From: Acidobacteriota bacterium
GTDB lineage: Bacteria > Acidobacteriota > Terriglobia > Acidiferrales > UBA7541
Length of the DNA: 64,000 nucleotides
Reading direction: 5' to 3'
Assembly: GCA_003224085.1 (NCBI GenBank)
Contig: QHYK01000048.1
Span: 62,001-126,000 of the forward strand
The notes beneath the pieces were generated by a model. It had not been told where the DNA came from. It ran no database searches and saw only the letters and a program-made list of their open reading frames with translations. Made by a program: the position numbers and the translations under genes. Shown one piece after another: positions 20,886 to 63,317 of the stretch; the stretch's first letter is position 1, and each line of letters opens with the position of its first letter.

Positions 20886-20959
20886 TTACCAAATGGAGCC
20901 TTATGTCCCCATGCCTAAAGAATGCCTAAAGGCCGGGGCTTTACGGCTCCATTTGGTAA
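20886..20959. repeat. Long inverted repeat with an IS605-like inner hairpin
   Basis: A 15-bp perfect arm TTACCAAATGGAGCC (20886-20900) pairs with GGCTCCATTTGGTAA (20945-20959). Inside are two copies of ATGCCTAAA and a GCCTAAAGGC palindrome flanked by CCCC and GGGG. The same GCCTAAAGGC core with a following G-run occurs at 61015-61029, beside the TnpB remnant. It could be a small palindromic mobile element or the scar of one; a terminator for the PilZ gene is another reading. Confidence 0.6.
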
Positions 20960-21436: not shown

Positions 21437-24097
21437 TTGCGACGCTCGATTGGCATTTTCTTCTCGATGGTTTCTGCAATCGCCATTTCCTTTGCGATTC
21501 CCAATTTCGCAATAGCCGCTGACTCCAGTGGTTCCGCAAACCGAACCTATCTGCACAAGAATTGGGAGCTTCAGTCTTCCTGCGAAGTGAAAGCCACCGG
21601 CGACCAAATTTCGCAGACGGGCTTCGACACTGCCGGCTGGCACAAGACCGACATTCCTGCTACGGTGGTCGGCGCGCTGGTCACAGACAAAACTTATCCC
21701 GATCCCAACTACGCCACGAATCTCGATTCCTTCCCGGGGATCAGCCATTCGAACATACGCGTTTTCGCCAATGAGGACATGCCCGAAGGCAGTCCTTTCA
21801 AATGTTCCTGGTGGTACCGAACCGAGTTTTCTTCGCCCGCCGACACAAGCAAGAATGTCTGGCTCAATTTCCTCGGCATCAACTACCGCGCCAACATTTG
21901 GGTCAACGGCCAGAGAATCGCTGACACCAATGATGTCGCCGGGACCTACCGCGCTTACGAATTCGACATAACCAAGTACCTCAAGCCCAGCGTCGCTAAC
22001 GCCCTGGCGCTCGAGATTTTCGCCCCCGACAAATACGACCTCGGCATTACTTGGGTCGACTGGAACCCTACCCCTCCCGACAAAAACATGGGCATTTGGA
22101 AAGAAGTGTTCCTTACTACCTGCGGCCCGGTCGCGTTGCGAAACCCCTTGGTCTCTTCAAAGCTCGACTCTGAGTACAAGACGGCCGAATTAACCATCAG
22201 CGCGGAAGTCCGGAACACTTTCAAAGAAGCAGTCAAAGGCGTGCTCCACGCACAGCTGGACACCGTCGCTCTCCGGCAGCCAGTGGAGCTCGCCGCCGGC
22301 GAATCCAAAATTGTCAAATTCTCTCCGGAGCAATTCCAAAAGCTCAAACTTGCGCGTCCCAAACTTTGGTGGCCCTATCAAATGGGCACGCCAAATCTCA
22401 AGACCGCGCATCTTCGCTTCGAAATCGGCAAGCAGGTATCGGATACCGCCAGCGTCACCTTTGGCATTCGCGAAGTCACCTCCGAACTCACCGACAAAGG
22501 CTATCGCCTTTTCAAAATCAATGGCCGCAAAATTTTGATTCGCGGCGCGGCCTGGGCTCCGGATCTGCTCTTTCGCTGGTCTTCCGCAAAGTTTGACGCC
22601 GACCTCGCTTACGTGCGCGACATGCACTTGAACACCATTCGCCTCGAAGGACGCCTCGACCGCGACGAGTTCTTCGACAAAACCGACAAGCTAGGAATTC
22701 TCGTCATGCCCGGCTGGACCTGCTGCGATGCTTGGGAGCGCTGGAAGTATTGGGAGGGAGATCAGAATCGCGTCGCCGCCGCTTCTTTGCGCGATCAAAT
22801 CACGCGCTTGCGCAACCATCCCAGCGTCTTTGTTTTCCTCAACGGAAGCGACAATCCGCCGCCTGCCGACGTCGAACAAATGTACTTGGCCATCGAAAAA
22901 GAATTGGATTGGCCCAATCCCATCGTGTCGTCAGCCTCCGAGCAAAAGACCACCTTGACCGGCGCGTCCGGCGTTAAGATGACCGGCCCCTACGAATATG
23001 TTCCGCCACACTATTGGCTCGAAGACACCCAAGCCGGTGGCGCCTATGGTTACAACACGGAAACAAGTCCAGGGCCGGCGATTCCTCCAATGGAATCTCT
23101 CGAAAAGTTCATCCCCAAGCAACATCTCTGGCCTATCGATGACGTCTGGAACTATCACGCGGGCGGCGAGCGCTTCACCAACGTAAACATTTTCACTGAC
23201 GGTTTGAACCGCCGCTACGGCGAGGCCACTTCCCTCGAGGACTACGAACGCAAAGCCCAGGCCATGACTTACGACGGCGAACGCGCCATGTTCGAAGCCT
23301 ACGGCCGCAATAAGTACACTGCAACCGGCGTGATTCAGTGGATGCTGAATAACGCCTGGCCTTCTCTGATCTGGCATCTCTACGACTACTACCTCGTTCC
23401 CGCCGGCGGGTATTTCGGAACCAAAAAGGCGTGCGAGCCTGTCCATGTGCAGTATTCCTACGACGACAATTCCGTCAACGTGGTTAACAGCACCTACGAA
23501 GCTCGGAAGGGAATGAAGGTTTCCGCGAAAATCTACAACATCGATGCAAAAGAAAAAGCCACGCGAAACGCAACCCTGGACATAGCTGCAGATAGCAGCA
23601 CCAAAGCCTTTGACCTGCAAGCTCCCGACGGACTCTCTACAACTTACTTCCTCAAGCTTCAGCTCCATGATGCCGCGGGAAAACTCGTCAGCGACAATTT
23701 CTATTGGCTTTCCACGAAGCCCGACACGCTCGAGTGGGCCGAGAGAAAAGACACCGACTACACGCCGCAAAAGGATTTCGGTGACCTGACCGGACTGAAC
23801 AGCCTGCCAAAAGCTAAGGTAACGATTGCCAAATCAACGCGGGCGAGCGGATCGAATCAGTGGGTCACCGTTTCCGTAGCCAACACTGGCGATAGGGTGG
23901 CCTTCTTGGTTCACCCCCGCCTCACTCGCGGCAAGAACGGCGATGACGTGGTTCCTGTTTTCTGGAGCGACAACTACTTTTCCCTGCTGCCCGGAGAAAA
24001 AAAATCTGTCACCGCGCAGTTTGACAGCTCTTCGCTTGCAGGGGCCCCTCCTAAACTCGTTGTGGACGGCTGGAACCTCGATCCGGTGTCACCATGA
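21437..24097 (+). CDS. Secreted glycoside hydrolase family 2 protein, exo-beta-D-glucosaminidase-like
   Basis: An 886-residue protein with a signal peptide ending near residue 28. A GH2 jelly-roll sugar-binding domain (about 35-230), an immunoglobulin-like domain (about 230-345), a TIM barrel (about 345-660) and C-terminal beta domains follow. The catalytic acid/base appears as Asp472 in NGSDNPP and the nucleophile as Glu542 in YNTETSPGP, matching the layout of exo-chitosanases such as CsxA (Asp469/Glu541). Such enzymes release glucosamine from chitosan ends. AGGAGG lies a few bases upstream of the start. The 3' end overlaps a convergent regulator gene by 47 bases. Confidence 0.88.
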   Translation: MRRSIGIFFSMVSAIAISFAIPNFAIAADSSGSANRTYLHKNWELQSSCEVKATGDQISQTGFDTAGWHKTDIPATVVGALVTDKTYPDPNYATNLDSFPGISHSNIRVFANEDMPEGSPFKCSWWYRTEFSSPADTSKNVWLNFLGINYRANIWVNGQRIADTNDVAGTYRAYEFDITKYLKPSVANALALEIFAPDKYDLGITWVDWNPTPPDKNMGIWKEVFLTTCGPVALRNPLVSSKLDSEYKTAELTISAEVRNTFKEAVKGVLHAQLDTVALRQPVELAAGESKIVKFSPEQFQKLKLARPKLWWPYQMGTPNLKTAHLRFEIGKQVSDTASVTFGIREVTSELTDKGYRLFKINGRKILIRGAAWAPDLLFRWSSAKFDADLAYVRDMHLNTIRLEGRLDRDEFFDKTDKLGILVMPGWTCCDAWERWKYWEGDQNRVAAASLRDQITRLRNHPSVFVFLNGSDNPPPADVEQMYLAIEKELDWPNPIVSSASEQKTTLTGASGVKMTGPYEYVPPHYWLEDTQAGGAYGYNTETSPGPAIPPMESLEKFIPKQHLWPIDDVWNYHAGGERFTNVNIFTDGLNRRYGEATSLEDYERKAQAMTYDGERAMFEAYGRNKYTATGVIQWMLNNAWPSLIWHLYDYYLVPAGGYFGTKKACEPVHVQYSYDDNSVNVVNSTYEARKGMKVSAKIYNIDAKEKATRNATLDIAADSSTKAFDLQAPDGLSTTYFLKLQLHDAAGKLVSDNFYWLSTKPDTLEWAERKDTDYTPQKDFGDLTGLNSLPKAKVTIAKSTRASGSNQWVTVSVANTGDRVAFLVHPRLTRGKNGDDVVPVFWSDNYFSLLPGEKKSVTAQFDSSSLAGAPPKLVVDGWNLDPVSP

Positions 24098-29588: not shown

Positions 29589-30575
29589 TCACTTCTTATC
29601 GGGAGGTGAGAGGTCGAAATCCTTCAGAAATTCTTCCAGGCGCAGGAATTTGCGTCCCAGCGCGCCGGAATAGGCAGACCATTCCAGGTCCCCGGTATCT
29701 GTCGCCAGGGCAGAGCGGACGGCCGCGAGCTTCGAGTCGAGATCGTCGAGATAGTGGAAGACAAGCGCTTCGCGAATCATCGGCAGCTTTGGCGAGCCGA
29801 ATTCGTATTCGCCATGATGGCTGATGAGCAGGTGCTGGACCACAGTTTTCAGATTGGGCGGAAAGCCCTCGATCGCGCTCAGTGCTTTCGAAACGGTTTC
29901 GAGCTCCATAACGATGTGGCCGAGGAGGTGGCCTTCGACGGTGTAACCAATGGCGCGTTGGTAGCACAACTCGTCGAGTTTGCCGACGTCGTGGAGGATG
30001 GCCGCCGTCAAAAGCAGATCCAAATCGAGTTCGGAATAATGTTCGGCGACGAGCTTGGCCAGGCCGCAAAGGCTGACGACGTGTTCGAGTAAGCCACCGA
30101 GATAAGCATGGTGCATGACTTTCGCGGCGGGCGCGCGTTTGTATTTCGCGGCGATGGCTGGATCGCTAAGAATCCCAGTTACCAGATTTTTCAGCCAAGG
30201 ATTTGAAATGGACGCCGCGTATGCCAACAATTCCCCATACAGCTTCGCAACGTCGGCTTTGGTCTGGGGCAAAAAATCGGCCAGGTCGATTTCTTCGGGC
30301 TTGGCGAGGCGCACTTGGATTACGGAAAGTTGCGCCCGGTTTTTGTAAATCTCGACGCGCGCCTGGACTTTCACGAAATCGTCGCGGTGAATGCCTTTAG
30401 CCGCGGTTTCAAACTGGTCCCACATGCGGGCTTCGATGGTTCCGCTGCGATCGCCCAGCTCGAGGCGCAGGTAAGGCTTGCCTTCGCGCGTGTTGCGAAT
30501 CTCTTTTTCGCAGACCAGGAAAAATGTGGTGATGTTCTGCTCGGAATTCAGGTCAGAGACGAGGGGTGTCTTCAT
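29589..30575 (-). CDS. YhaM-like 3'-5' exonuclease (OB fold plus HD domain)
   Basis: A 328-residue protein with an N-terminal OB-fold nucleic-acid-binding domain (about residues 15-95, with YLRLELGDRSGTIEARMWD) and a C-terminal HD domain. The metal ligands are HH at 155-156, HD at 195-196 (AAILHDVGKLDE) and the later SHHGEYEFGSP. YhaM of Bacillus subtilis degrades RNA and single-stranded DNA from the 3' end. It lies in the minus-strand run between the SurA-like and dus genes, with 56 and 34 bases of spacing. Confidence 0.88.
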   Translation of the reverse strand: MKTPLVSDLNSEQNITTFFLVCEKEIRNTREGKPYLRLELGDRSGTIEARMWDQFETAAKGIHRDDFVKVQARVEIYKNRAQLSVIQVRLAKPEEIDLADFLPQTKADVAKLYGELLAYAASISNPWLKNLVTGILSDPAIAAKYKRAPAAKVMHHAYLGGLLEHVVSLCGLAKLVAEHYSELDLDLLLTAAILHDVGKLDELCYQRAIGYTVEGHLLGHIVMELETVSKALSAIEGFPPNLKTVVQHLLISHHGEYEFGSPKLPMIREALVFHYLDDLDSKLAAVRSALATDTGDLEWSAYSGALGRKFLRLEEFLKDFDLSPPDKK

Positions 30576-30631
30576 CGGGCGGTATTCTAGCCTAGGTTAT
30601 TCATCAAGAACATATCTGACAGCGGAAATCT

Positions 30632-31903
30632 TCATTTCCCGGAATCGGCGCCGGATTTTGCGGAACTCGAACCGGACCGCTTGCCGAAAAGCAGGAATTT
30701 CTTGTGGCCTTTCTTTTGCTTGCTGACTTCTGGAGTGGCGCTGACTTCCTGAATCTCCGAGCCGCCTCCACCCGCGATGTCCTGGTAGCCTGGCTTGATG
30801 ATGACGTAGCTTTGCTCGCGAAGCGTCCTGAGGTAGGCGCGCACGGCGGGCTCCAAGCGTTCGTTATAAAGCTTCTCGGTGATTTCATTTCTGACTTTGT
30901 CGAGAGACTGCTGGCCTTCGTCGTAGTGCTCGAGCACCTGAAGAATCAGGTAACCCTGCTTGGTCTCCAGAACGTCGGTAAGCTGGTTGCGCTTCATGGC
31001 GAAGACTTTGTCTTCGAGTTCCTTGGCCAGTTCACCGCGCTTGTAAACGCCCAGAAAGCCACCCTGGTCCTTGGTGCTGCTGTCGGAGTAGCGCTTGGCG
31101 ATTTCGCCGAAGTCTTCGCCGTCCTGAACGCGCTTAAGAGCCGTTTCCGCTTTTTTCTTTAGGGCAGGAAGTTCATCCGCGCTCTTTCCTTGGGTGTTGA
31201 CTTGAATTTCTCGCAGCGCGACCTGCTCCGGGCGAACAAATTCCGATCTGTGCGCCTGGTAATACTTCTGGATTTCGTCGTCGGTGATGGTGATGTGCGA
31301 GCCGACTTCGCTGCCAATGACCTTCTGCGTGAGCAGGTGGTTTTCGATGTTGCTCTGGAAATCCTCCCAGTTCATGCCTTCTGAAGTTACCGCTTTTTCG
31401 AGTTCGTCAATGCTCGCCAGCTTGTTTTGCGTGCGAATCTGGTCGAGCTGCTTGATGACTTCGGGTTTGACGCTGACGCCCATATCTTTGCCGCGCTGGA
31501 CGAGCAAAGACTGGTCGATGAGGTCGCGCAGCACGTTCTTCTGGCGCTCTTCGATATCCGTCTGCAACTGTTCTGGTGTGCAGCGGCCCTGGCATTCCAG
31601 CTTGGCGTCCTCTGCAGCGCTCTGCTTTGCCTTTTCGTATTCGGAGAGCGTGATGATTTCGTTGTTGACGCGCGCTATGATTTCTTCGATGGTCTTGCCG
31701 GCGTTCGGATCAACGGGCTGCGTCGGCGCCGAACCCCTCAGCTTCTGGGCGGGAGGAGGCGGAACAGGCTTCGTTGGTGCTGCAGCAGGCGGAGGCGCTT
31801 GCGAGCTGGATTTCTTGTCCTGGGATTGCGCCTGGCCGTTGGTAGGCAAGGCCGCGAGACATAGTGCGGCGCAAAGCATCAGGATTACGACAAGTTTTCT
31901 CAT
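30632..31903 (-). CDS. SurA/PpiC-type peptidyl-prolyl isomerase
   Basis: A 423-residue exported protein with a signal peptide (KLVVILMLCAALCLAALP), a Pro/Ala-rich linker, a SurA-like N-terminal chaperone region (EEIIARVNNEIITLSEYEKAK onwards) and a parvulin domain (VALREIQVNT to VLETKQGYLILQV). The tail is very basic (KQKKGHKKFLLFGKRSG), which is unusual for SurA. Such proteins help outer-membrane proteins fold in the periplasm. I use the ATG at 31903, preceded by GGGGGAAGG. It lies 21 bases downstream of mfd, likely cotranscribed. Confidence 0.9.
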   Translation of the reverse strand: MRKLVVILMLCAALCLAALPTNGQAQSQDKKSSSQAPPPAAAPTKPVPPPPAQKLRGSAPTQPVDPNAGKTIEEIIARVNNEIITLSEYEKAKQSAAEDAKLECQGRCTPEQLQTDIEERQKNVLRDLIDQSLLVQRGKDMGVSVKPEVIKQLDQIRTQNKLASIDELEKAVTSEGMNWEDFQSNIENHLLTQKVIGSEVGSHITITDDEIQKYYQAHRSEFVRPEQVALREIQVNTQGKSADELPALKKKAETALKRVQDGEDFGEIAKRYSDSSTKDQGGFLGVYKRGELAKELEDKVFAMKRNQLTDVLETKQGYLILQVLEHYDEGQQSLDKVRNEITEKLYNERLEPAVRAYLRTLREQSYVIIKPGYQDIAGGGGSEIQEVSATPEVSKQKKGHKKFLLFGKRSGSSSAKSGADSGK

Positions 31904-47676: not shown

Positions 47677-47967
47677 TTGCCGCTGCACACGTTTGTCCGC
47701 TTTGAGCCGCAGCCTGGGAAAGAGCAAAAGCTTCGCGAGGAGTTGAAGCTCCTGCTGGAACCCACCCGCGCGGAGCCCGGCTGTATCGGCATTCATCTTT
47801 ACGAAGCGCTGCGCGAGCCGCTGATGTTTTATATCCACTCCGAGTGGGTGGACGAAGCAGCTTTCGATGCCCATCCCAAGCTGCCCCACATGACGCGCTT
47901 TCTCGGCCTGGTCAGCGGACTCACCACTTACCCCGTGAAGGGCATCCGCACCAAACAAATCGGTTAA
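47677..47967 (+). CDS. YgiN-like (ABM) monooxygenase family protein
   Basis: A 96-residue ferredoxin-fold protein of the antibiotic biosynthesis monooxygenase (ABM) superfamily. Typical features are HTFVRFEPQPGKEQKLREELKLLLEPTRAEPGCIGIHLYEA, then FYIHSEWVDEAAFDAH. YgiN-like members act on quinols. The start is a TTG at 47677; no ribosome-binding site is strong. It lies just after the previous gene and could be in one transcript. Confidence 0.75.
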   Translation: MPLHTFVRFEPQPGKEQKLREELKLLLEPTRAEPGCIGIHLYEALREPLMFYIHSEWVDEAAFDAHPKLPHMTRFLGLVSGLTTYPVKGIRTKQIG

Positions 47968-48097
47968 TGCTTCCCCCCGTCCGTCGCGCCCTCATCGGCG
48001 GGCAGAGCGCTCTTGCCGGGTTCTTCCTGGCATTTCCTGCTAGTGCGCCGTCACCGAAATTCGTACAAAGATCCTTCCCCGGGAAGTCGCTGTAGGG

Positions 48098-48115
48098 GGT
48101 ACGACATGTCGTGCC
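48098..48115. repeat. Near-palindrome in the gap between two convergent genes
   Basis: GGTACGACATGTCGTGCC is an 18-base near-palindrome (one mismatched pair) followed by CTCTTTTATG. It could be a terminator serving the convergent YgiN-like and DinB genes. The T-run is short. Confidence 0.4.
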
Positions 48116-48259
48116 CTCTTTTATGTCACGAGCGATGGTTACGGGGACTCCAGAAAGACGAGATTTCAGAGAGCAGCAGCGAGGAATCTCTCCTTTCAGG
48201 CAGTTCTCACACAAGCTCTCAGTCCGTGAAGTCACCCAGGAGGATTTTTTCACTAGCCG

Positions 48260-48796
48260 CTAGGCTTTTGCCGCGCGCATCTGCGCCACTCGCTCCTGGA
48301 ATTGCCTCGTCAGATGCGGCACGATTCCCAAATGCCGCTCGATGAGCATCAACTGCGCGCGATGATGCATTTCATGTTCCTTTGCTCCTAATAGTCTCTC
48401 GAAGCGCGTCTTCGTGCTCTTTCCGTCGGGTTCGGTCACGGTTTCTGCCAGAAACTCGGGCGTCAGCGTCTCCATCCACGCCGCAAACTGCTCACCCTCG
48501 GTTCGCAGCAGCTCCAGAATCTCCTTCTTTGTCCTCGGCTTGGCCTCCTCGGCTTGGAACTTGTCTAGCATCCCAAAGAAGTCGAAGCCCACCAGCGTGC
48601 TCAGGCGCTTCTTTTCGATTTCTTCCCAGCTTCGCGTGGCGATCGCCACGTGCGTCAGCATGCGCGCGACGGTTCGGACTTCCGGAGCTGCCACGAAGCC
48701 GTACCGGTCCTCCGGAATGTCCTGGGCCACCTGAATGGTGTTCTTGCGCACCGTGCGAAAGGCCTTCGCCAATTCTTTTCCGCCATAAATGCTCAT
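48260..48796 (-). CDS. DinB-superfamily protein
   Basis: A 178-residue four-helix bundle protein. Family metal ligands appear as HVAIAT and HEMHHRAQLMLIERHLG. The start at ATG 48796 has GAGGTG upstream; longer frames are unsupported. Such proteins may be thiol-dependent transferases (bacillithiol/mycothiol type) or metal hydrolases. An intact counterpart to the frameshifted DinB gene at 6567-7057. It lies near rsmI on the same strand, 99 bases downstream of it. Confidence 0.85.
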   Translation of the reverse strand: MSIYGGKELAKAFRTVRKNTIQVAQDIPEDRYGFVAAPEVRTVARMLTHVAIATRSWEEIEKKRLSTLVGFDFFGMLDKFQAEEAKPRTKKEILELLRTEGEQFAAWMETLTPEFLAETVTEPDGKSTKTRFERLLGAKEHEMHHRAQLMLIERHLGIVPHLTRQFQERVAQMRAAKA

Positions 48797-58637: not shown

Positions 58638-60995
58638 ATGGTTTGCTCGGGATTGCTATCGGATGCCACGCCTCGCACGGCGAAAGGGAGGCGACATCTT
58701 TCCGCAATAGCTTTGATTGCGGCCTGCCTCGTGACGGCAATTGCACTTCCTTCGAGCGCCTCTGCTCAACTCCGCGAATCCGCCGCGAAACTGATCGCCC
58801 GCACCATGGGTACTCCCGAATTCCGGCCGAGGTCCTTTCGAGGCGGCACTTGGCTGGGGAACGGCGATGCGTATCTGGATATAGAGCCGTCAGCCTCGGG
58901 AATCGGCAGCGACATCGTGAAGTACGAGACCGCTACGGGCGCAAGAGAAGTTTTCGTTGCTACCAGCCGCTTGATTCCCGCGGGCGAGAAAACACCGCTG
59001 GACGTCGAGCACTACAGCATGTCCCTGGACGGACATCGCGTTCTGGTGTTCACAAATTCGAAAACCGTGTGGCGCCAGAACACGCGCGGAGACTACTGGG
59101 TGCTCGACCTGGCAAGCGGCGCGTTGCGTAAGCTTGGAGGCGACGCTCCCGCGTCCAGCTTGATGTTTGCCAAGTTTTCGCCAGACAACGGCAAGGTCGC
59201 TTACGTTCGCGGAAACAACGTGTACGCGGAAGATTTAGCAAGCGGAAAAATCACGCAACTGACCCACGACGGCTCTGACACCATCATCAATGGAACGTCA
59301 GACTGGGTGAATGAAGAAGAATTCGATATACGGGATGGCTTTGCCTGGAGTCCCGACAGCCGCTCGATTGCTTTCTGGCAGTTCAACATCAGCGGCGTCC
59401 ACAAATACACGCTGATTTACGACCTCGGCGCGCCAAGAGGCGAGATCGTCACTAACATTCCTTATCCGAACATAGGACCCTATCCGCAGACGTTGGAATA
59501 TCCGTATCCACTGGCGGGAACACAGAACTCCGCGGTTCGCGTCGGGGTGGTGAGCGCCGCCGGTGGGCCGGTCGTTTGGATGGAGACGACGGGAGATCCG
59601 CACAGCCGTTACATTCCGGAAATAGGCTGGGCGGATTCCAGCCACGTGCTTCTGCAACACATGAACCGGCTGCAGAACAGAAATGAATTTTTGCTGGCTG
59701 ACGCGTCCAGCGGCGCCTCGCGCGCGGTGTTTGTGGATGAAGACAAAGCCTGGGTGGATGTGAATCGGGACATTGCCTGGATTAATCACGGGCGCGAATT
59801 CCTGGTGACCAGCGAGCGCGATGGTTGGCGCCATTTGTATGGCGTGGCACGCGATAGCGGTAAAGCCCGATTGGTCACGCGCGGCGACTTCGACGTCGTC
59901 AGCGTGGATCGCCTCACCCCGGACGAGAAATGGGTCTTCTTCATCGCGTCGCCTGAAAATGCGACGCAGCGCTACCTCTACCGCGCGCGGCTGGACGGAA
60001 CGGCTGTGCCCGAGCGCTTGACGCCGAAAGTGCCGGGCACGCACTCGTACACGATTTCGCCGAATGCCCAATGGGCCTTTCATACCTACTCTTCGTTCGA
60101 TGTGCCTCCCGCTTTTGACGTGGTGCACCTCCCCGATCACGGAGTGGTGCGAAAGACGGTAGATAACGCCACCATTGCAGACCGCGTGAAGCCGCTGTCG
60201 GGCGGGCCGGCGGAATTTGTGAAGGTGGATGCGGGAAATGGCTTGCTGGTGGATGCGTGGCTGCTGAAGCCGCCCGATTTTGACGCTTCGAAGAAATACC
60301 CGCTGATTGTTTATGTGTACTCGGAGCCTGCCGGACAGACGGTTGCAGACCGCTGGGCGTCGATGTTTGATCGCGCATTAACCAGCGCCGGTTATTTGGT
60401 GGCCAGTTTTGACAATCAGGGAACGCCCGCTCCGCGAGGCCGCGAGTGGCGCAAGATCATCTACGGAAATCTGGGGGCCCTCTCGTCACGCGAGCAAGCC
60501 ACGGCGCTGCAATCGCTGGCAAAGACTCATCCTTATATCGATTCGAAACGCGTCGGCGTGTGGGGATGGAGTGGAGGCGGAACGGAGACGCTCAATCTGA
60601 TGTTTCGCTACCCCGAAGTCTACAGCGTCGGCGTGTCGGTAGCGTCGGTGCCCGATCAGCGGCTCTATGACAGTATCTATCAAGAGCGCTATTTAGGTTT
60701 GCCGCAGGATAGCCCGAAAGCTTACGAACAAAGCTCTGCAATCAATTTTGCTTCCGGCTTGCGCGGCGATTTGCTCGTGATACAGGGCACCGGCGATGAC
60801 AACGTGCATTTCCAAGGATTCGAATTGCTGGTCAACAAACTGATTTCGCTTGGCAAACAGTTTGACATGCGCGTGTACCCGGGCCGCACGCACTCCATCT
60901 CGGAAGGGAAAGGCACGAACCAGGATGTGTTCACTAATATTCTGGGATACTTTGAAGAGCACCTTCCGCCCGATCCTTCCTATTTGTCTCATTGA
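58638..60995 (+). CDS. Secreted dipeptidyl-peptidase-IV-like S9 peptidase
   Basis: A 785-residue protein with a signal peptide ending near SASA (residue 43). An eight-blade propeller of the DPP-IV type is followed by the hydrolase domain. The family double-Glu region shows NEEEFDIRDGFAWSPDS. The catalytic serine is in GWSGGG (Ser645), the Asp in GTGDDNVH (about 721) and the His in GRTHSI (752). The usual GWSYGG Tyr is replaced by Gly. Such enzymes remove X-Pro dipeptides. GGAGG lies eight bases upstream of the ATG. An IS remnant follows. Confidence 0.92.
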   Translation: MVCSGLLSDATPRTAKGRRHLSAIALIAACLVTAIALPSSASAQLRESAAKLIARTMGTPEFRPRSFRGGTWLGNGDAYLDIEPSASGIGSDIVKYETATGAREVFVATSRLIPAGEKTPLDVEHYSMSLDGHRVLVFTNSKTVWRQNTRGDYWVLDLASGALRKLGGDAPASSLMFAKFSPDNGKVAYVRGNNVYAEDLASGKITQLTHDGSDTIINGTSDWVNEEEFDIRDGFAWSPDSRSIAFWQFNISGVHKYTLIYDLGAPRGEIVTNIPYPNIGPYPQTLEYPYPLAGTQNSAVRVGVVSAAGGPVVWMETTGDPHSRYIPEIGWADSSHVLLQHMNRLQNRNEFLLADASSGASRAVFVDEDKAWVDVNRDIAWINHGREFLVTSERDGWRHLYGVARDSGKARLVTRGDFDVVSVDRLTPDEKWVFFIASPENATQRYLYRARLDGTAVPERLTPKVPGTHSYTISPNAQWAFHTYSSFDVPPAFDVVHLPDHGVVRKTVDNATIADRVKPLSGGPAEFVKVDAGNGLLVDAWLLKPPDFDASKKYPLIVYVYSEPAGQTVADRWASMFDRALTSAGYLVASFDNQGTPAPRGREWRKIIYGNLGALSSREQATALQSLAKTHPYIDSKRVGVWGWSGGGTETLNLMFRYPEVYSVGVSVASVPDQRLYDSIYQERYLGLPQDSPKAYEQSSAINFASGLRGDLLVIQGTGDDNVHFQGFELLVNKLISLGKQFDMRVYPGRTHSISEGKGTNQDVFTNILGYFEEHLPPDPSYLSH

Positions 60996-61010
60996 GATGT
61001 TGACGACTCC

Positions 61011-61035
61011 GCACGCCTAAAGGCGGGGGATTCCT
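61011..61035. repeat. IS200/IS605-type terminal hairpin beside the TnpB remnant
   Basis: On the minus strand the sequence reads GGAATCCCCCGCCTTTAGGCGTGC, containing the GCCTTTAGGC stem common to right ends of IS200/IS605-type elements. It lies about 75 bases downstream of the TnpB stop, the expected place of the right end. Confidence 0.6.
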
Positions 61036-61097
61036 CGGAGTTACTATGCGACATGGCCACCTACCTCCGACGATGTTTCCTGCTTCACGGGCCCACG

Positions 61098-61115
61098 CCT
61101 AAACTCGCGTTTAGG
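61098..61115. repeat. Perfect hairpin overlapping the TnpB stop codon
   Basis: CCTAAAC and GTTTAGG flank a four-base loop (7-bp stem) at the very end of the tnpB frame. In IS605 elements the guide (omega) RNA is made from tnpB's 3' end through the right end; this stem would be in that region. Confidence 0.6.
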
Positions 61116-62265
61116 TCTTACCGTGCCTCCACAGGCTAATACCGAGCGTCCCTCGGCTAAGATTCTCAAACCCTCGACGGAGGGAAATGTTTACGACGGC
61201 ATTCTCGTCCCGCTGATGTTCGGTATGGCAACTCGAACACGTCCAACGGTCTTGGAGTTTGAGGTCTACCTTCTTTTGGTGACAAATGCAGCACAACTTT
61301 GATGACGGGAAGAACCTAGCTACTTTGACGAGCGTTCTTCCAGGCCACTTGCACTTGTATTCCAACATGCCAACGAACTCACCTGTGCCCGCATCCGAGA
61401 TGGCTCTGGCTAAGCGGCGATTCTTAAGTAGGTTCTTGGTGCCGAGCGTCTCAACCATAATCACTTGGTTTTTGTGAATCAGTTGAGTGCTCAATTTCTG
61501 AAGAAAATCCGTGCGCATGCGTTCTTCGTAACGGACTCCCTGATGCAGGATCAACCAGATTAGCCGACACTGTCGATGGGCGATGGCCCCAATGGCTTGA
61601 TTGTGTCCCAGGCGCGAGACGGAGCGGCGATACACGATCTCGAAGATGCTTCCTTTGGTCCTGGCTGCGGCGCTCGCCGCCTGATTGAGTAAGCGTCGCA
61701 TGTGACGGTTACCCTTCGGAGAGCGGTGGCTGTAGTTTATGCCTGCGCTCTCGTCGTCGCCCGGGCAGGCACCGACCCATGAGGAGAGACACTTCTCGGA
61801 GGGAAAGGTCGCCGCGGTGGGACCGACTTCGGCAATGATCTGTTGCGCCGAGTCCACACCCAGACCGGGCACCTCCGCCAGTCGCTCGACGGCGTCCTGG
61901 TGCTGGCTGAGTAGGCTGGCCATCTCTTTGTCCAATTGGCCAATCTGCTGTCCGAGGAATTGCAACTGCTCCAGCGCCATCTTCAGAAGCCGCCGGTACA
62001 CCGGCTTGAGGTCCGTGCACGCGCCGAGTGCATCACACAATTGTTCTGGCGTGGCGCGCAAGTTCCGATCGGCCAAAGCGGCCAGAGCCGCCGGGTTGGT
62101 TTCCCCGTCAGCGAGCGCCTTCAGCATGCGCCGGGCACTAGCACCTAGCAGATCCGAGACGAAGCTGGACAACTTTTGATAGCTAGAACGAAAATACCCA
62201 ATTGTTCCCTCTTGACGTGGGACTGCGAAGTGGTATTGTGCGCTCATGTAGGATTCACATTCCAT
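61111..62265 (-). CDS. Chimeric IS110 transposase / TnpB reading frame
   Basis: A 384-residue frame. Residues 1-29 are non-homologous. Residues 30-249 match the C-terminal half of IS110-type recombinases: QKLSSFVSDLLGASARRML, a helical middle, EVPGLGVDSAQQIIAEVGPTAATF, SSWVGACPGDDESAGINYSH (with the Ser of the second active site), KGNRHMRRLLNQAA. Residues 250-384 match the TnpB C-terminus: RTDFLQKLS, the RuvC glutamate in IMVETLGT, EYKCKWPGRTLVKV, a zinc finger (CCICHQ, CSSC), and RDENAVVNI with the last RuvC Asp. The IS110 DEDD domain and the first TnpB RuvC aspartate are absent, so neither catalytic centre is complete. It may not be expressed. Confidence 0.8.
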   Translation of the reverse strand: MECESYMSAQYHFAVPRQEGTIGYFRSSYQKLSSFVSDLLGASARRMLKALADGETNPAALAALADRNLRATPEQLCDALGACTDLKPVYRRLLKMALEQLQFLGQQIGQLDKEMASLLSQHQDAVERLAEVPGLGVDSAQQIIAEVGPTAATFPSEKCLSSWVGACPGDDESAGINYSHRSPKGNRHMRRLLNQAASAAARTKGSIFEIVYRRSVSRLGHNQAIGAIAHRQCRLIWLILHQGVRYEERMRTDFLQKLSTQLIHKNQVIMVETLGTKNLLKNRRLARAISDAGTGEFVGMLEYKCKWPGRTLVKVARFFPSSKLCCICHQKKVDLKLQDRWTCSSCHTEHQRDENAVVNISLRRGFENLSRGTLGISLWRHGKT

Positions 62266-62289
62266 TCACGAAGTCGTCAGGAGGAACGC

Positions 62290-62547
62290 ATGGCAAGCGC
62301 GCAGCGGGCACCTCGGGACGTGCTTCTCCAGGCAGACGCTGAGTATCGGCGTCTGGCTGAGCAGCACCGGCAGTATGATCTGGAACTTCAACGCATCTCC
62401 AAATCCCCCTACCTGAACGCAGAAGACCTCCTCGAAGAAATCCGATTGAAAAAGAAGAAGCTGCACTGCAAAGATGAAATGGAGCGGATTGCTGCGCGCA
62501 TTCTGCGCGAGCAGCGAGATCCAGGCAATACGAGCTTTGCGGCGTAG
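62290..62547 (+). CDS. DUF465 (YdcH-like) small helical protein
   Basis: An 85-residue helical-hairpin protein. The pattern AEYRRLAEQHRQYDLELQRISK, YLNAEDLLEEIRLKKKKLHCKDEMERIA is the DUF465 signature, with a conserved LKKKKL. Function unknown in the family. AGGAGGA precedes the ATG, the best ribosome-binding site around. The gene is divergent from the IS remnant, whose frame extends over its leader. Confidence 0.88.
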   Translation: MASAQRAPRDVLLQADAEYRRLAEQHRQYDLELQRISKSPYLNAEDLLEEIRLKKKKLHCKDEMERIAARILREQRDPGNTSFAA

Positions 62548-62624
62548 AAAACTGGCGTAGAATGGCCATGCTTGCCCGCGGCGGCTGAGCCGTGGGCGAT
62601 GAAGTGGAGGTCTACTCCGTTCGA

Positions 62625-63317
62625 ATGGTCAAAGAAGGCTTTTTCTTTGGGCTGCCGCCGCTGGTGTTAGGCGGCGGAGCTTTTTTGCTTCACTGGAATG
62701 TCACCGCGGCAGTTCTAGCGTTGCTGGCCTTATTTGTTTTTTTCTTCTTTCGTGATCCAGAGCGCGTGATCCCTTCCGAACCTGGCGCAGTGGTGTCGCC
62801 CGCAGACGGGCGCGTTGTGGTTGTTACGGAAGAAGAGAATGCGGGGCGCCCGGGGCAGCGCCTGAGCATTTTCCTGGCGGTCTGGAACGTGCACGTAAAC
62901 CGCGCGCCTGTGTCTGGAACCATTACAAAAATGGATTACCGGCCGGGGAAATTTTTTGCGGCAATGCGGGAACGCGCTTCGTTCGAAAATGAGCAACAGG
63001 TGTTTACGCTTTCGAACGAAGCGGGCGAAATGGTCTTCAAACAGATTGCCGGACTCATCGCGAGGCGAGTAGTCTCTTGGAAAAAGCAAGGCGAGCAGGT
63101 CTTGCGAGGAGAACGTATCGGGCTGGTGCGATTCGGATCCCGCGTGGATGTGTGGCTGCCAAAAGGTGCTGAGATTCTGGCGAAAGTGGGAGAGAATGTC
63201 AAAGGCGGGGCCAGCGTGATTGCCAGGTGGCCGGCGCACCGCGCGTTTGAGCAAACGTCCACGAAAAACGCGGCAGACGCGGAAGCGAACTTGATTGCAG
63301 CCGGAAAGCGATCGTAA
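62625..63317 (+). CDS. psd: Phosphatidylserine decarboxylase, short (archaeal-type) form
   Basis: Psd turns phosphatidylserine into phosphatidylethanolamine. The 230-residue form has an N-terminal membrane helix pair (LPPLVLGGGAFLLHWNV, AVLALLALFVFFFF), RDPERVIP, VSPADGRV, WNVHVNRAPVSG and the self-cleavage site RFGS (Ser172), which yields the pyruvoyl group. The start may also be the GTG at 62592. pssA follows after two bases, the usual pair for PE synthesis. Confidence 0.93.
   Translation: MVKEGFFFGLPPLVLGGGAFLLHWNVTAAVLALLALFVFFFFRDPERVIPSEPGAVVSPADGRVVVVTEEENAGRPGQRLSIFLAVWNVHVNRAPVSGTITKMDYRPGKFFAAMRERASFENEQQVFTLSNEAGEMVFKQIAGLIARRVVSWKKQGEQVLRGERIGLVRFGSRVDVWLPKGAEILAKVGENVKGGASVIARWPAHRAFEQTSTKNAADAEANLIAAGKRS

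What the first reader, a model, noticed from the sequence alone, without database searches (positions are those of the whole stretch)
61111..62265. In-frame fusion of an IS110 recombinase piece with a TnpB C-terminus
One reading frame joins the second half of an IS110-type recombinase (the Ser-bearing domain) to the final third of TnpB (RuvC motifs II and III and a zinc finger). Both source families are guided by RNA in their complete forms: IS110 by a bridge RNA and TnpB by an omega RNA. The junction lies at codon 250 (about 61518), after the IS110 motif RYEE and before TnpB's RTDFLQKLS. Catalytic residues are incomplete in both parts, so activity is unlikely; but the open frame of 384 codons with no stops is notable for a relic.
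Basis: partly seen in the sequence, partly recalled or inferred. Interest (0 to 1): 0.6.

Follow-up and report, generated by a model that had tools for sequence, protein, structure and literature searches.

The report
Accidental in-frame join of two transposon fragments
Two broken pieces of ordinary jumping genes happen to lie end to end in one reading frame in a soil acidobacterium; nothing suggests that the joined frame makes a working protein, so this is ordinary genome debris.

Summary
ORF 61111-62265 (-), 384 codons, joins an internal IS110 recombinase fragment (about codons 31-249, the serine "Tnp" domain) to a TnpB C-terminus (codons 250 to about 360, RuvC-II/III and zinc finger), at 61518/61519. 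It is best read as young transposon debris, not a domesticated protein.

(1) The join occurs only here. In 101 related genomes, 25 other matches to a 161-bp junction probe all stop at or just short of the join; none crosses it.
(2) Five congeners have an insert-free intergenic region between the same two host genes. Codons 1 to about 29 are antisense to the conserved promoter and leader of the neighbouring DUF465 gene, so the start codon belongs to neither transposon and has no ribosome-binding site or promoter.
(3) The TnpB half carries no private substitution against ten other copies, but has a private 4-bp insertion that puts its last ~24 codons out of frame.
(4) dN/dS of the IS110 half (0.13 to its nearest relative) equals that among the relatives, so it records selection before the join.
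(5) The same genome holds another in-frame mosaic (TnpA start joined to internally deleted TnpB).

The likely history is two adjacent same-strand insertions followed by two deletions.

The parts
60998..61110 (-). Right end of an IS200/IS605-type element (end ...GGAGTCGTCAAC), directly abutting the dpp stop codon; continues the tnpB fragment
   Evidence: Aligns to the same terminus in the other full-right-end copies in this genome, after which flanks diverge
61111..61518 (-). 3' part of tnpB (codons 250-384 of the ORF); retains the RuvC-II Glu, RuvC-III Asp and a four-Cys zinc finger; a private 4-bp insertion near codon 360 puts the last ~24 codons out of frame
61519..62175 (-). Internal fragment of an IS110 recombinase gene (Tnp domain with ESAG serine; the whole DEDD half and the last ~40 residues are missing)
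   Evidence: Nucleotide matches of 72-89% to complete IS110 genes covering 61519/61520-62175; protein alignment A1
62176..62265 (-). Codons 1-30 of the fused ORF: a few junction bases, then antisense of the host promoter and leader of the DUF465 gene; not transposon coding sequence
   Evidence: From about 62182 conserved upstream of the DUF465 gene in five congeners without the insert
62212..62239 (+). Sigma-70-like promoter of the DUF465 gene (TTGACG, 16 nt, TATTGT, TG before the -10), conserved in relatives
62290..62547 (+). DUF465 gene, right host flank
   Evidence: PF04325, E 5.4e-8; synteny
58638..60995 (+). Dipeptidyl peptidase IV / S9 peptidase gene, left host flank
   Evidence: PF00930 and PF00326; synteny

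Best explanation
This is insertion-sequence debris. Inferred history: an IS200/IS605-type element (LE-tnpB-RE) inserted just after the dpp stop codon, with tnpB on the minus strand. An IS110 element inserted beside it in the same orientation. One deletion joined the inside of tnpB (codon 250 of the present ORF) to the inside of the IS110 gene, removing the tnpB 5' part, the left end and the IS110 3' end. A second deletion joined the inside of the IS110 gene to host sequence just upstream of the DUF465 promoter. The two remnants fell in the same frame by chance (1 in 3), and the frame ran on for about 30 codons through the antisense of the host promoter to an arbitrary ATG. The frame is open because both pieces are young. 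No expressed or functional fusion protein is expected. Shown: the parts, both junctions, the insert-free state in relatives, the uniqueness of the join, the frameshift and the youth of the TnpB half. Inferred: the order and number of deletions.
For: Two separate homologies. Full-length tnpB copies continue upstream of the join with tnpB sequence, and IS110 copies continue downstream with IS110 sequence. None of 25 other junction-probe matches in 101 genomes crosses the join, and no locus has it. Five congeners keep dpp then DUF465 without any transposon, and the ORF's N-terminus is antisense to their conserved promoter region. The minus strand shows no promoter-like site; the AGGAGG there belongs to DUF465 on the other strand. 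A private 4-bp frameshift lies in the tnpB part, with 0 private substitutions. dN/dS of the IS110 part against relatives is 0.09-0.14, against 0.09-0.13 among relatives. The same genome holds many truncated tnpB copies and a second in-frame mosaic, Y1_Tnp start plus TnpB.
Against: The frame has no stop over 384 codons, and the retained Ser, Glu, Asp and Cys residues are intact. Both are expected for young fragments. No expression data could be examined.
Confidence: 0.95

Rival explanations
1. A domesticated IS110-TnpB fusion protein kept by selection, for example as a DNA- or RNA-binding regulator.
For: Open frame with the IS110 serine motif, TnpB RuvC-II/III residues and zinc finger retained.
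Against: Join found in one genome only; start region is antisense to a host promoter, with no ribosome-binding site and no promoter-like site on its strand; C-terminus frameshifted against all other copies; RuvC-I, the TnpB N-terminal part that binds RNA and the DEDD domain are all missing.
Confidence: 0.01
2. Assembly artefact: repeat copies of the IS605-type element and the IS110 element were wrongly joined in this draft genome.
For: Multi-contig draft assembly (159 contigs); the tnpB element is multi-copy and several copies lie at contig ends.
Against: Both flanks are the two neighbouring host genes seen in five congeners; no long shared repeat at either junction; the IS110 piece has no close copy in this genome (best 81-85%); the private 4-bp insertion marks a distinct copy.
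Confidence: 0.04

Closest known systems
IS200/IS605-family TnpB (ISDra2 type, PDB 8BF8/8H1J)
   Same: Residues 249-361 align to the RuvC-II, zinc-finger and RuvC-III part, with Glu, Asp and four Cys kept
   Different: The N-terminal two thirds, including RuvC-I Asp, are missing, and the real C-terminus is frameshifted
IS110-family recombinase (IS621 type; PMC11208158)
   Same: Carries the PF02371 Tnp domain with the ESAG serine motif
   Different: The whole DEDD domain PF01548 and the C-terminal ~40 residues are missing; in IS621 mutation of any DEDD residue or the serine abolished recombination (PMC11208158)
TldR, domesticated nuclease-dead TnpB-like regulators (PMC13418256)
   Same: Would be a TnpB descendant without nuclease activity
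   Different: From general knowledge, TldRs keep the RNA- and DNA-binding body and recur across genomes; this piece lacks that body and occurs once

Membership tests
TnpB nuclease | RuvC-I, II and III catalytic residues (D, E, D) | tested here: not met
   Only the RuvC-II Glu and RuvC-III Asp lie in the aligned part; the region before residue 249 is IS110
TnpB nuclease | C-terminal TNB / zinc-finger domain | tested here: met
   PF07282, 295-360, E 4.2e-18
TnpB nuclease | N-terminal helix-turn-helix and RNA-binding lobe | tested here: not met
   PF12323 is found in the full copy L009 and absent here
IS110 recombinase | DEDD RuvC-like domain PF01548 | tested here: not met
   Present in L062 residues 6-169; absent from P0001
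IS110 recombinase | Tnp domain PF02371 with conserved serine | tested here: met
   PF02371 127-208; ESAG motif invariant in alignment A1. That this is the S241 equivalent is inferred; no IS621 hit was obtained
Domesticated fusion gene | Junction conserved between genomes | tested here: not met
   25 other probe matches in 101 genomes, none crosses the join
Domesticated fusion gene | Purifying selection after the join | tested here: inconclusive
   0 private substitutions in the TnpB half; 5 S and 3 N in the IS110 half, undated
IS200/IS605 element | Both ends (LE after TTAC, RE) flanking the genes | tested here: not met
   RE intact at 60998-61000; no LE match at this locus, though LEs were found for other copies

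The most novel reading that the evidence does not exclude
The relic keeps the tnpB 3' end and an intact element right end, the part that in related elements supplies the omega RNA. It might still be transcribed as a solo guide RNA that serves TnpB made by other copies in the same genome.
Probability: 0.03. Interest if true: 0.4.

Novelty: already known. Interest (0 to 1): 0.06.

Why it matters
It matters little by itself. It is a clean example of how decaying insertion sequences make open chimeric frames that look like fusion proteins of two RNA-guided families, which is a trap when mining genomes for new fused effectors. If it were a kept protein it would be a new kind of fusion, but the evidence goes against that.

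Tried and rejected
Longer protein hits on actinobacterial plasmids that seemed to cover both halves (H1, H7) were checked: both are plain IS110 genes; the H1 extension runs past a stop codon into unrelated sequence, and the re-run H7 match ends within IS110. The idea that the TnpB piece is a mobile unit ending exactly at the join was rejected: most other copies continue upstream with tnpB sequence. One copy (L003) is internally deleted within a few bases of the same site, taken as coincidence, because its left side is the element's own left end. Rfam gave no match in 60500-62700. Searches for a solved IS110 relative by sequence found none. Paper searches found no described IS110-TnpB fusion. 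No structure prediction was run, since a chimeric relic would give no useful test.

Full report
What is there. The minus-strand frame 61111-62265 is open for 384 codons. Pfam places the IS110 Tnp domain (PF02371) at residues 127-208 and the TnpB TNB domain (PF07282) at 295-360. phmmer against solved structures aligns residues 249-361 with ISDra2-type TnpB, keeping the Glu of RuvC-II (IMVETLG), the Asp of RuvC-III (HQRDENA) and the four cysteines. Alignment with complete IS110 recombinases shows that the IS110 part starts within the protein (KLSSFVSDLL, residue 171 of the 429-aa relative in L062) and ends at RYEER, about 40 residues before their C-terminus. The whole DEDD domain, found in the relative by PF01548, is missing. 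In IS621, mutation of any DEDD residue or of the serine abolished recombination (PMC11208158), so the piece cannot be an active recombinase. TnpB's first two thirds, with RuvC-I and the helix-turn-helix found in a full copy of this genome, are also missing.

Anatomy of the insert. Reading the plus strand: the stop codon of a dipeptidyl peptidase gene (60993-60995), an IS200/IS605 right end (from 60998), the tnpB 3' part (to 61518), the IS110 fragment (61519-62175), then host sequence from about 62182 with the promoter and leader of a DUF465 gene. In five congeners the same two host genes are neighbours with no transposon between them. The region antisense to the first ~29 codons of the fused ORF is conserved there, including TTGACG-16-TATTGT with a TG before the -10. 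The ATG at 62265 thus lies antisense in the leader of DUF465. The AGGAGG there serves DUF465 on the other strand, and the scan shows no promoter-like site on the minus strand. The fused ORF has neither transposon's start.

Uniqueness of the join. A 161-bp probe centred on the join was searched in 101 genomes of the genus, family and beyond. Apart from the locus itself there are 25 matches: those on the IS110 side end at or before probe position 81, those on the TnpB side begin at position 82 or later, and none crosses. A protein search of 61 genomes and a scan of the species genome collection that included the junction peptide as a pattern also gave only separate halves. Neither junction shows a long shared repeat, as expected of illegitimate deletion and not of homologous recombination or simple repeat misassembly.

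Age and selection. Against ten other tnpB copies (eight in this genome, one in G030 and one in another acidobacterial assembly) the TnpB half has no private substitution before the frameshift, and differs from its nearest copy, L003, at 3 sites. It has one private change that matters, a 4-bp insertion near codon 360, after which the ORF reads the tnpB tail in the wrong frame. The IS110 half shows dN/dS of 0.13 to its closest relative and 0.09-0.14 to others, the same as intact relatives show among themselves (0.09-0.13). That ratio was set while the gene was a live transposase. So the proposed Ka/Ks test cannot show selection after the join, and the openness of the frame needs no selection.

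Likely history (inferred). Two elements inserted side by side on the same strand between dpp and DUF465. One deletion fused the inside of tnpB to the inside of the IS110 gene, and a second fused the inside of the IS110 gene to host DNA just above the promoter. Agreement in frame has a 1 in 3 chance. In-frame mosaics of this sort are not rare here: on the same contig a 307-codon frame (L015) joins the first 57 or so residues that match IS200 TnpA (Y1_Tnp) to an internally deleted TnpB, and the genome holds about 28 further matches to the tnpB 3' and right-end region, many truncated.

Verdict. Observation confirmed; the fused frame is an accident of decay. The most novel reading left open is that the retained right end still gives a guide RNA used by TnpB from other copies; there is no evidence for it and I put it at 3%.

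Noticed in passing
L147 (G000:C91, about 30413-30694) and L148 (G000:C45, about 23008-23287): Two near-identical miniature elements of about 285 bp at unrelated places: IS605-type left end after TTAC, a short middle, and the right end with the tnpB-tail region, but no gene. They look like non-autonomous derivatives (MITE-like) that keep the presumed omega RNA region.
   Followed up: partly
L015 / L155 (G000:C131, about 47866-48786): A second in-frame mosaic ORF of 307 aa: IS200 TnpA N-terminus (Y1_Tnp) joined to an internally deleted TnpB.
   Followed up: partly
L003 / L154 (G000:C43:37570-38141): Internally deleted element: the left end is joined directly to the tnpB 3' part within about 4 bp of the breakpoint seen in the window; it is also the nearest copy to the window's TnpB half.
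   Followed up: partly
window 20894-20959 (-): A 74% match to the IS605-type left end, a possible further remnant.
   Followed up: no
L060 (CAJCHZ010000099.1) and L032 (G006:C99): A contig titled Betaproteobacteria has the same length as, and appears identical to, contig 99 of G006, which the genome set places in the window's own acidobacterial genus; the record title looks wrong.
   Followed up: no
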